Below are positions 14,424 through 17,152 of a stretch of 29,264 bases of DNA, one piece after another. The stretch comes from a virus. The notes beneath the pieces are model-generated. The model was given only the letters and a program-made list of their open reading frames with translations. It was not told the DNA's origin and ran no database searches. Where the stretch lies: positions 1 to 29,264 of IMG/VR virus record IMGVR_UViG_3300048672_000155; one strand, given 5' to 3'. Each line of letters starts with the position of its first letter. The stretch's first letter is position 1. A program made the translations under genes and the position numbers.

Positions 14424-14429
14424 TTGATA

Positions 14430-15032
14430 ATGTTTGAAAAGAATAAAAATTTGAGATCCAAGAATGAGACTGTTAAATTTACTCAAGAAATGTTAGAAGA
14501 GTATATGAGATGTTCTGAAGATATTTTATATTTTGCTAGCAAGTATTATTACATTACAACTATTGACTATGGGAAGATTATTATACCTTTGTGGGATTTT
14601 CAAAAAAAGGTATTGCTTGCTATGCAGAATCCCCCCAATGGTAAGAGACATACGATAATGAATTTTTCAAGACAATCAGGCAAAACAACTTTATCTTCTA
14701 TATTTTTGTTACATCAAGCATTATTTAAAACTAATCAAGTTTTTGCAATTCTAGCCAACCGAGAAAAAACCGCCATAGAAATTTTAAGACGAATAAAAGA
14801 TGCTTATGAAATGCTTCCTTTATGGTTACAGCAAGGTGTTGTTGAATGGGCTAAAGGTAAAATTGCGTTAGAAAATGGTTGTGTTATATTAGCGTCATCA
14901 ACATCATCAACGGCAATCAGAGGATATACTATAAATTGCGTTACTGCTCCGACAAAAGTAACAGTAAGGAATAAAAAAACAGGTAAGATTGAAGAGATGT
15001 CTATAAAAGAATTGGAGAAGTGTTTATGTTAA
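14430..15032 (+). CDS. 17: terminase large subunit N-half with 31-residue split-intein N-fragment
   Basis: The first 169 residues are the N-terminal part of the TerL packaging ATPase: adenine-binding region PLWDFQKKVL (53-62), Walker A SRQSGKTT (80-87) and SSTAIRGYTIN just before the expected Walker B strand. At Cys170 (base 14937) an intein block A begins (CVTAPTKVTVRNKKTGKIEE) and the frame stops after only 31 intein residues. The rest of the protein is in the -1 frame in the next gene, whose ATG (15026) overlaps this stop. ATG 14430 after AAAGGA is preferred to TTG 14424. Activity requires trans-splicing with the downstream product. A true split gene and a frameshifted continuous intein both fit; the new ribosome site favours the former. 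Confidence 0.9.
   Translation: MFEKNKNLRSKNETVKFTQEMLEEYMRCSEDILYFASKYYYITTIDYGKIIIPLWDFQKKVLLAMQNPPNGKRHTIMNFSRQSGKTTLSSIFLLHQALFKTNQVFAILANREKTAIEILRRIKDAYEMLPLWLQQGVVEWAKGKIALENGCVILASSTSSTAIRGYTINCVTAPTKVTVRNKKTGKIEEMSIKELEKCLC
14937..15029 (+). other. split intein N-fragment
   Basis: There are 31 codons from the splice-junction Cys to the stop. Features are Cys1, the T-K-V of block A at residues 6-8, and the turn RNKKTGKIEE leading to MSIKEL. Block B (T-x-x-H) is absent here and lies in the other gene. Such short N-fragments characterise atypically split inteins, of which AceL-TerL (25 residues), also in a TerL gene, is the known example. Confidence 0.88.
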
Positions 15033-16132
15033 AAAGAAACGATCTTGATATTGAAGAGCATAAGAAATTTATTTATGCTTATAAAATTACTAATACGATA
15101 GACAATACTATATATGTAGGTATTCACGGTACAAATAATTTAGATGATGGGTATATGGGTTCTGGAAGTTATCTTAAGAGAGCAATTAAAAAGTATGGAA
15201 GAAAAAAATTTACAAAAGAGATACTTCAATATTTTAAATCGTATAAAGAGGCATTAGATTATGAGGCTGTAATAGTAACAAAAGAGTTTATAGAGCGTCA
15301 TGATACTTATAATCTTAAAGAGGGTGGTTTTTGTAATTATGAGTGGTCTGATGAATATAAAAGAAATCAATCTATAGCTATAAGAGGAAGTGAACTATGT
15401 AGAAATAAAATAAAAATTCTTAATAAAAATCCAGAGAAAATAAGAAAAATGGCAGAATCTCACACAGGAATGAAAAGAACGGAAGAAAGTAAAAAGAAAA
15501 TGTCTGATGCAGGAAAAGGAAAGCATGATGGTATTTTGAATGGTTGGTTTAAAGGATGGTATATAACTCCTAAAGGAAAGTTTGAAAGTTTACGAAAAGC
15601 AGGTAAAGAATTTGATAGTTGTGATGCTAATATAGATAATTGGTGTGTTAGATTAAATTCTAAAAAAATAGTTAAAGGAACAATATTAAGAAGACCTGAT
15701 TTGTTTGATTTGTCTATGTTAGGTAAAACTTGGAAAGAACTTGGATGGGGGTTTGATGCTGCTACTAAAAAAGAAAGAAAAGTTAAATATGACACTCTTA
15801 AAGAAAACACAGAATATGAAATACTAACATCCGAAGGTTTTAAGGATTTTAAGGGTATTGTAACTTCTAAAGCAGCAACATTAATTTTAACATTTGATGA
15901 TAATAGCACTTTAGAATGTACAAAAAAACATAGAATATTTTATAAGACAAAAGTAGGAAAGAGATATAAATATGCACAATCTTTCAAAATTGGTGATAAT
16001 GTTGTAAGTAAGGACGGGTTCAAAACAATAATAAAAATAGAAAAAGTTCAAGGAGCATATCAAACAGTATATGAAATATTGCAAGTTTCTGACAATAATG
16101 AATACTATACAAATGATATTTTGAGCCACAAT
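15026..16132 (+). other. split intein C-fragment carrying a GIY-YIG homing endonuclease
   Basis: It runs from the start codon to the terminal Asn before Cys370. The last 21 residues contain EILQVSDNNEYYTNDIL and end S-H-N, giving the penultimate His and terminal Asn needed for cyclisation; T299-K-K-H302 is block B. Splicing would release this 369-residue piece as an endonuclease fused to the intein C-domain. Confidence 0.88.
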
Positions 16133-17152
16133 TGTCTTGTATTAGACGAGTATGCTCATGTGCCACCAAATATACAGGATGATTTTATGTCTTCTGTAAT
16201 ACCCACAACATCATCGGGAAAAACTTCTAAGATTATTATTATGTCAACTCCGAATGGTACAGAGATGTTTTATAATATTTGGACTGCTGCTGTTCGTGGT
16301 CAAAATTCTTATTATCCTATTAAAGTATTATGGTCTGACATTCCTGGTAGAGATGCTGCTTGGCGAAAGAGAATAATAGATGATCTTCCTGGTGGACTCG
16401 ATAGTTTTCTCCAAGAGTATGATTGTCGTTTTATAGGATCAGCAAACTCTCTAATTGACACAGATAAATTAGAAAAATTCAAATATAAACCATACTTAGA
16501 TACAAAATGGAGCGGTTTGATGAAGATTTATGAGTACCCTATAGTTGGCTGTAAATACGTGATAGGGGTTGACACTGCAGGAGGTGGTGGTCAACTTAAA
16601 TCAAATTATTCAGTAATTCAGGTAATAAAGATCAAAAGTAAACAAGATTTGGAACAGGTGGCTATTTATAGATGCAACACAGTAAACCCATATGATTTTG
16701 CTATTATTGTTAAGGATGTATCAAACTATTATAACGATGCGTCTGCTATGATAGAAAATAATGCAGACGTTGGTGGAATATTATTGGCGACACTTTGGAA
16801 CGACTTGGAGTTTGATAAGATAGTAAATATATCTCCGAAGTGGCTAGGTGTTAAAGCTACATCAATAACAAAGAGCGAAGGTAATATGTTATTGAAGAGA
16901 TACCTTGAGTCGGGTTGGTTGACATTGTGGGATAAGGATACAATACATGAGTTAAGTATGTATCAAGAGGTTCGTTTGGGAATTTTTAAGGCACAAAGGG
17001 ACAGTGATTTTGATGATTGTGTTACTTCTCTTATTTGGGCTGTTTATTATACCAAGACGGATGAATTTTCTGATTTAAACATGGATGATATTTATAGACC
17101 AGATGTTGTGAGAGATGATAAGAATTATGAGATGATGGCTATTTTTGATTGA
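15026..17152 (+). CDS. 17: GIY-YIG endonuclease - intein C-fragment - terminase large subunit C-half
   Basis: This 708-residue protein has three parts. Residues 14-101 are a GIY-YIG nuclease (FIYAYKITNTIDNTIYVGIHG, then MGSGSYLKRAIKKYG and NLKEGG), followed by NUMOD3-like ESHTGMKRTEESKKKMSDAG (144-163) and a further probable DNA-binding segment ending GKTWKELGWGF. Residues about 252-369 are the intein C-fragment, with block B CTKKH (298-302) and a terminus ILSHN, then Cys370 as the +1 residue. Residues 370-708 are TerL: Walker B LVLDEYA, coupling motif STPNG, and RNase H-like nuclease motifs GVDTAGG, IENNAD and DFDDCVTSLIWA. Joined to the N-half, the extein is 508 residues, a normal TerL. GGAG (15014-15017) eight bases before ATG 15026 supports independent initiation over the GTG at 15020. 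Confidence 0.9.
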   Translation: MLKRNDLDIEEHKKFIYAYKITNTIDNTIYVGIHGTNNLDDGYMGSGSYLKRAIKKYGRKKFTKEILQYFKSYKEALDYEAVIVTKEFIERHDTYNLKEGGFCNYEWSDEYKRNQSIAIRGSELCRNKIKILNKNPEKIRKMAESHTGMKRTEESKKKMSDAGKGKHDGILNGWFKGWYITPKGKFESLRKAGKEFDSCDANIDNWCVRLNSKKIVKGTILRRPDLFDLSMLGKTWKELGWGFDAATKKERKVKYDTLKENTEYEILTSEGFKDFKGIVTSKAATLILTFDDNSTLECTKKHRIFYKTKVGKRYKYAQSFKIGDNVVSKDGFKTIIKIEKVQGAYQTVYEILQVSDNNEYYTNDILSHNCLVLDEYAHVPPNIQDDFMSSVIPTTSSGKTSKIIIMSTPNGTEMFYNIWTAAVRGQNSYYPIKVLWSDIPGRDAAWRKRIIDDLPGGLDSFLQEYDCRFIGSANSLIDTDKLEKFKYKPYLDTKWSGLMKIYEYPIVGCKYVIGVDTAGGGGQLKSNYSVIQVIKIKSKQDLEQVAIYRCNTVNPYDFAIIVKDVSNYYNDASAMIENNADVGGILLATLWNDLEFDKIVNISPKWLGVKATSITKSEGNMLLKRYLESGWLTLWDKDTIHELSMYQEVRLGIFKAQRDSDFDDCVTSLIWAVYYTKTDEFSDLNMDDIYRPDVVRDDKNYEMMAIFD

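What the first reader, a model, noticed from the sequence alone, without database searches (positions are those of the whole stretch)
15026..16132. GIY-YIG/NUMOD3 endonuclease physically fused to the C-fragment of the split intein
Seen: GIY-YIG (FIYAYKI...YVG), NUMOD3-like and another DNA-binding segment precede intein block B in one protein. Known: intein endonucleases are mostly LAGLIDADG or HNH, and in fractured phage genes the endonuclease often is a separate gene. Here the split lies before the endonuclease, so splicing would liberate an endonuclease-intein C-domain fusion. This could be an intermediate between a mobile intact intein and a split intein with a free endonuclease.
Basis: partly seen in the sequence, partly recalled or inferred. 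Interest (0 to 1): 0.72.

Follow-up and report, generated by a model that had tools for sequence, protein, structure and literature searches.

The report
Homing endonuclease fused to split-intein half
In this phage the gene for the DNA-packaging motor is broken in two by a protein-splicing element, and a DNA-cutting enzyme that would spread the element is fused to the second half; this arrangement is rare but already marked in one sequenced phage, so it is a good example of a known kind rather than a first.

Summary
The TerL gene of a T4-like phage contig is split just before Walker B by an atypical split intein (31-residue IntN). The second ORF (ATG 15026, good ribosome site, 7-nt overlap) encodes a Seg-like GIY-YIG/NUMOD3 homing endonuclease, IntC and TerL-C in one frame. 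Conserved GIY-YIG and intein residues are intact, the model matches I-TevI, and removing the intein aligns gap-free with an intein-less TerL (L003). Predicted action: trans-splicing makes TerL and frees a 43-kDa endonuclease-IntC protein that homes into intein-less terL.

It is not the first. Yet it is rare: 3 of 86 non-redundant IntC domains examined. The same endonuclease family, often at the same terL site, is usually a separate gene (31 of 80 loci) and sometimes fused to IntN (4 of 80). No ORF joins IntN, endonuclease and IntC. So "intermediate" is possible but undirected. The most interesting point is that endonucleases sit at an N-proximal intein site, contrary to the published view that intein endonucleases occupy one C-proximal site, and here always beside a break.

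The parts
14430..14936 (+). TerL (gp17-like) N-extein with Walker A (RQSGKTT, 14670-14690); the ORF is listed from TTG 14424, the ATG is at 14430
14937..15029 (+). IntN, 31 residues, Cys1, atypically short; stop codon 15030-15032
15014..15017 (+). Shine-Dalgarno GGAG, 8 nt before ATG 15026
   Evidence: read directly
15026..17152 (+). second ORF: endonuclease + IntC + TerL C-extein; overlaps the IntN ORF by 7 nt
15068..15325 (+). GIY-YIG catalytic domain (residues 15-100); Y19, Y30, E80, N96 kept
15467..15523 (+). NUMOD3-like DNA-binding motif
   Evidence: E 0.16, below cut-off; alignment with relatives
15524..15799 (+). C-terminal part of the endonuclease (similarity to SegD-type proteins ends at residue 231) and linker to IntC
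15800..16132 (+). IntC, block B His, ends SHN; C+1 at 16133
16133..17149 (+). TerL C-extein starting C-LVLDE (Walker B 16136-16150) and nuclease domain

Best explanation
It is a mobile, naturally split TerL intein of the atypical (short-IntN, AceL/Cat-TerL-like) type whose Seg-like GIY-YIG homing endonuclease is translated as an N-terminal fusion to IntC. Two coupled ORFs give TerL-N-IntN and endonuclease-IntC-TerL-C. IntN and IntC associate, trans-splicing joins RGYTIN to CLVLDE and restores the packaging ATPase, and a 369-residue (43-kDa) endonuclease-IntC protein is released, probably still bound to IntN. It would cut intein-less terL near the Walker B codons and spread the element by repair-driven copying. 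Because IntC has no start of its own, a stop or frameshift in the endonuclease would also kill TerL, so the fusion ties upkeep of the endonuclease to an essential gene. Shown: ORF layout, domains, conserved residues, precise insertion relative to an intein-less relative. Inferred: splicing, release, DNA cutting, homing, selective benefit.
For: Layout, ribosome site and overlap. Domains. The columns invariant among 10 aligned family members, window included, contain Y19, Y30, H34, E80 and N96. The GIY-YIG domain is modelled at pLDDT 93-98 and its top PDB match is I-TevI 1mk0, prob 1.00, E 0.013. IntC columns invariant in 12 relatives (His, Asn, Cys+1 and others) kept. Spliced TerL aligns without a gap at the junction to intein-less L003, 291 of 509 aligned residues identical. 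The endonuclease lies within a weakly supported group (82/52) of TerL-associated endonucleases. Cultured phages with the same architecture: PX29 and three AsFcp isolates, Va1. The window's KYDTLKENTEYEILT aligns by eye, in frame, with the leader of separately translated IntCs, e.g. YKHKTFKNTNFEVLT in L039/L041.
Against: No experiment. One contig only; no near-identical sequence was found to confirm the fused frame. GIY-YIG and NUMOD3 score just under Pfam cut-offs. The AlphaFold model is poor over the linker and IntC (mean pLDDT 63.8; the mixed alignment misplaced the IntC rows). An arginine equivalent to I-TevI R27 could not be placed, and invariant E80 falls one column from I-TevI E75 in the profile alignment.
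Confidence: 0.82

Rival explanations
1. The fused frame is a one-contig indel (assembly error or fresh mutation) in what is normally a separate endonuclease gene followed by a separately started IntC, as in the nearest relatives.
For: 15 loci listed (several near-copies) have the same endonuclease family as a separate ORF whose stop lies at or overlaps an IntC ATG. In the window an ATG at 15789 lies just before IntC, out of frame with it by one, much like the overlapping ATG in L001 or L020.
Against: The fused frame reads through the part resembling known IntC leaders in the correct frame. Two unrelated cultured lineages (PX29, Va1) are fused as well. The neighbouring large ORFs of the window are open.
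Confidence: 0.1
2. Trans-splicing works but the endonuclease is no longer an active homing enzyme; it persists as a passenger or as a folding aid on IntC.
For: Related inteins lose their endonuclease: L033 keeps only the catalytic part before in-frame stops, and 10 of 86 IntC domains were split with nothing between the halves.
Against: The window's endonuclease is full length with all family-invariant residues.
Confidence: 0.12
3. The halves do not splice; TerL-N and TerL-C assemble as two chains, as reported for the split NrdA of Aeromonas phage Aeh1.
For: Split enzymes without splicing exist (PMC2988022, passages read).
Against: Cys1, block B His, Asn and Cys+1 are all kept, and the extein junction matches an intein-less TerL exactly; none of this would be kept without splicing.
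Confidence: 0.03

Closest known systems
Aeromonas phage PX29 gene 17A/17B (NC_023688; also AsFcp_1, _2, _4)
   Same: TerL split by an atypical split intein; GIY-YIG/NUMOD3 endonuclease fused N-terminally to IntC in one ORF, overlapping the IntN ORF
   Different: Another terL site (QEH|C...HN|CCRFMG); endonuclease only about 24% identical in the aligned part
Vibrio phage Va1 terminase ORFs (MK387337)
   Same: Endonuclease fused to IntC in one ORF behind an IntN ORF
   Different: DUF559/Vsr-like endonuclease, other terL site
Free-standing layout at the same terL site (IMG/VR L029, L039, L041, L047, L085 and others)
   Same: Same site before the L-x-x-D-E Walker B, same Seg-like GIY-YIG family, atypical split intein
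   Different: Endonuclease is its own gene; IntC has its own ATG
IntN-fused layout (L147, L164, L171, L174; decayed L033; other families in JK32-like phages)
   Same: Endonuclease at the same intein position; L147-type sites lie two residues from the window's; L033 has the window's site
   Different: The break lies after the endonuclease
AceL-TerL / GOS-TerL / Cat-TerL atypical split inteins
   Same: TerL intein with a 25-37 residue IntN (PMC11766414 passages); CatC is the best structural match
   Different: No endonuclease in the characterised constructs
T4 SegD and relatives (phrog_314)
   Same: GIY-YIG catalytic domain plus NUMOD3-type DNA-binding part
   Different: Seg proteins are free-standing, not joined to an intein

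Membership tests
GIY-YIG homing endonuclease (Seg-like) | GIY-YIG fold and catalytic residues | tested here: met
   equivalent of I-TevI R27 not placed
GIY-YIG homing endonuclease (Seg-like) | site-specific DNA cleavage | not testable with these tools
   needs an assay
Atypical split intein (AceL/Cat-TerL type) | short IntN (25-37 residues in the known ones) and long IntC on separate ORFs | tested here: met
   IntN 31 residues; IntC matches CatC; published IntN lengths
Atypical split intein (AceL/Cat-TerL type) | splice-site residues Cys1, block B His, terminal Asn, Cys+1 | tested here: met
Fractured gene with split intein (Dassa 2009) | free-standing endonuclease gene between the two halves | tested here: not met
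   endonuclease is in frame with IntC; definition recalled, the paper is not held
Canonical endonuclease-containing intein | endonuclease inserted at the conserved C-proximal (C35) site of one continuous intein | tested here: not met
   endonuclease follows a 31-residue IntN, and the intein is split; rule as stated in PMC6801210

The most novel reading that the evidence does not exclude
Phage TerL inteins have a second, N-proximal docking place for homing endonucleases, used by several unrelated endonuclease families. It is tolerated only when the intein is broken on at least one side of the endonuclease, so the atypical split is the price of placing an endonuclease there. The window is the form in which the remaining covalent link, to IntC, makes the essential gene hostage to the endonuclease.
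Probability: 0.35. Interest if true: 0.65.

Novelty: new variant of a known kind. Interest (0 to 1): 0.45.

Why it matters
Beyer et al. [quoted passage not shown] TerL atypical split inteins carry endonucleases near that N-terminal end, attached to IntN, to IntC, or to neither; in this census none is attached on both sides. That makes the steric rule, and the proposal that endonuclease invasion creates split inteins, directly testable with natural sequences. The fused form is also a possible source of targetable nuclease-intein proteins. For this single locus the result is a rare but precedented arrangement.

Tried and rejected
Rejected: (a) missed IntC start: no in-frame start with a ribosome site lies before IntC; the in-frame ATG at 15716 lacks one, and the ATG at 15789 is out of frame. 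(b) Novelty of the architecture: PX29 17B is so annotated. (c) Direction of evolution from a tree: 58 endonuclease rows, the window not inside any well-supported set. (d) Cellular relatives: genome-contig scan with the endonuclease-IntC protein, 22 pattern stretches, 0 relatives. (e) Two whole-protein alignments (A5, A6) misplaced the IntC rows; only A5 was folded, so its IntC part is not used. (f) T4 late-promoter motif TATAAATA (recalled): 12 in the window against about 5 by chance (2 of 100 shuffles as many); one at 15965 lies inside IntC; not pursued. (g) Literature: searches 'split intein'+'GIY-YIG' (7 papers), 'fractured genes' (28), 'PX29'+'intein' (1), 'terminase large subunit'+'split intein' (5), 'GIY-YIG'+'intein'+'terminase' (17), 'free-standing endonuclease' etc. 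(83), 'AceL-TerL' (1), 'C-terminal intein' and others (94), 'Aeromonas phage'+'gene 17'+'intein' (0). No listing or passage that I saw describes an endonuclease-IntC fusion; most papers were seen only as listings, and Dassa 2009 is not held, so absence from print is not established. (h) The profile matches to designed PPR proteins were taken as chance.

Full report
What is there. The window is a 29,264-base IMG/VR virus record with a T4-like structural gene run. Its large terminase gene lies in two ORFs: 14424..15032 and 15020..17152, with the ATG of the second at 15026. The first ends in 31 residues of IntN after RGYTIN. The second runs endonuclease, IntC, TerL-C. A GGAG lies 8 nt before ATG 15026, which overlaps the first ORF's stop by 7 nt, as expected for coupled translation (read directly).

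Domains. The first 258 residues are a Seg-like GIY-YIG endonuclease: Pfam GIY-YIG 3e-4 and NUMOD3 0.16, both just below cut-off; TIGR01453 3e-8; phrog_314 homing endonuclease 3e-39; about 33-37% identity to phage SegD-type proteins over residues 19-231. Twenty columns are invariant in ten aligned family members, including Y19, Y30, H34, E80 and N96. In the profile alignment to I-TevI (1ln0) Y19, Y30 and N96 fall on Y6, Y17 and N90; E80 is one column off E75; no R27 equivalent could be placed (I-TevI numbering from the chain positions printed there). AlphaFold gave pLDDT 93-98 for the catalytic domain, but only 63.8 overall, with IntC unreliable; the top PDB match is the I-TevI catalytic domain 1mk0 (E 0.013, prob 1.00, target TM 0.66). 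IntC matches CatC, the consensus atypical split intein, and keeps the invariant His, Asn and Cys+1.

The empty site. L003, from a 169-kb record, is the closest TerL found (54% over TerL-C) and has no intein. Joining the window's two extein halves gives 510 residues that align with L003 without a gap at the junction, 291 of 509 aligned residues identical; the site is RGYTIN|CLVLDE against RGLSFS TLLLDE. The intein thus sits just before Walker B.

Precedents. Aeromonas phage PX29 gene 17B carries the GenBank note 'contains putative GIY-YIG endonuclease and C-intein'. The same fusion is in AsFcp_1, _2 and _4 at 99% or more (AsFcp_4 is flagged UNVERIFIED). Providencia phage PSTRCR_127 and Serratia phage 92A1 have the same endonuclease type (42% identical to PX29's) as a separate gene. 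Vibrio phage Va1 has a DUF559/Vsr-like endonuclease fused to IntC. So the architecture is recorded in cultured phages.

How common. An IntC alignment scan of IMG/VR gave 221 relatives, best 80 kept. Pooling these with the endonuclease scan and the phage records fetched on purpose, and leaving out L002 and L004 (copies fetched through the genome search), 157 IntC domains in 135 loci reduce to 86 non-redundant (<95% by a simple string-similarity ratio). 75 of 86 have under 60 residues before IntC. Of the 11 with more, 3 are endonuclease-IntC fusions (window, PX29, Va1), 7 are continuous mini-inteins with TerL-N directly upstream, and 1 (L171) is a Walker A intein. A second sorting of the same 86 gave 49 with a separate ORF of 150 residues or more between the halves (one of these, L016 at 3906, is really a continuous mini-intein), 13 long-in-ORF, 10 split with nothing between, 8 without TerL-N in the locus, 5 with an endonuclease-sized tail on the TerL-N ORF (L051 is doubtful), and 1 with a gap only (L033). 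The samples are not random: PX29 and Va1 were fetched because they matched.

From the endonuclease side. A scan with the endonuclease alignment gave 464 relatives, best 80 kept. Of these 80, 31 lie as a separate ORF beside IntC-TerL, 4 are fused to the IntN ORF (L147, L164, L171, L174; the script filed the last two as 'HEN+IntC' because an earlier intein is in the same ORF, corrected by reading L171; L174 has the same coordinates), 45 have no IntC in the locus (several end at the contig edge there), and none is fused to its own IntC. Free-standing copies at exactly the window's terL site include L029, L039, L041, L047 and L085, 39-46% identical over 178-193 residues. L033, at the window's site, has the endonuclease fused to IntN and broken by in-frame stops, with IntC starting at its own ATG.

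Reading. The fused frame is the true IntC frame: by eye, the window's KYDTLKENTEYEILT matches leaders such as YKHKTFKNTNFEVLT. The alternative, a one-contig indel, is kept as a rival because the nearest relatives are unfused and an out-of-frame ATG lies at 15789. The fusion removes the separate IntC start, so damage to the endonuclease would also cost the phage its terminase; L033 shows what can happen when that link is absent. This selection argument is inference.

All one-sided and two-sided breaks exist, but no continuous IntN-endonuclease-IntC ORF was seen among the 86 IntC domains or the 80 endonuclease loci. The endonuclease tree (58 rows, 200 columns) puts the window in a weakly supported TerL-associated group (82/52) without a supported partner. 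So whether the fusion is an intermediate or a secondary joining is open.

Wider point. Pfam scans of 20 of the 28 listed intervening ORFs that the GIY-YIG profile did not hit, plus those, show several families at this place: GIY-YIG, DUF559/Vsr-like, TnsA-like, T5orf172, HNH_3, DUF7487; 5 of those 20 had no Pfam hit at E 0.01. The position follows an IntN of about 31 residues, whereas PMC6801210 (passages) holds that intein endonucleases occur only at C35. PMC7891396 (passages) describes a split class 3 intein with a separate GIY-YIG gene at the usual split site. PMC11766414 (passages) gives the AceL/GOS/Cat TerL intein lengths and notes that atypical inteins need threading of the N-extein during assembly. 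PMC2988022, PMC10448857, PMC12363816 and PMC3653736 were read as passages only.

Noticed in passing
L005 1485-2813, L008 (Campylobacter Fletcherviruses): The IntC-TerL-C half stands next to a neck-protein gene with no TerL-N in the fetched stretch (3 kb flanks asked for), so the two halves of the split terminase seem physically unlinked.
   Followed up: partly
L067, L096, L098-L100, L006, L016, L034, L061, L171: terL genes with two or more inteins, some at the Walker A motif, including long ones that look like LAGLIDADG inteins (by eye).
   Followed up: partly
L033 1949-3504: Same terL site as the window; GIY-YIG endonuclease in frame with IntN but interrupted by in-frame stops: a decaying endonuclease caught in the act.
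   Followed up: yes
L014 4844-6275 (Campylobacter phage IBB_35): A second terL intein carries a long insert in frame after IntN, resembling an HNH-type endonuclease by eye, and its IntC reading frame is broken, while sister phage CP21 (L016) has a continuous mini-intein there.
   Followed up: partly
L031 6684-7307, L032 6680-7303: A further GIY-YIG endonuclease resembling PX29's lies outside terL in these contigs.
   Followed up: no
L092 1501-3399: The ORF between the TerL halves combines DUF7487 repeats with a weak Mom-like match (E 1.5e-5, below cut-off).
   Followed up: no
window, 12 sites: TATAAATA (T4 late-promoter-like, recalled) occurs 12 times against about 5 expected by chance.
   Followed up: no
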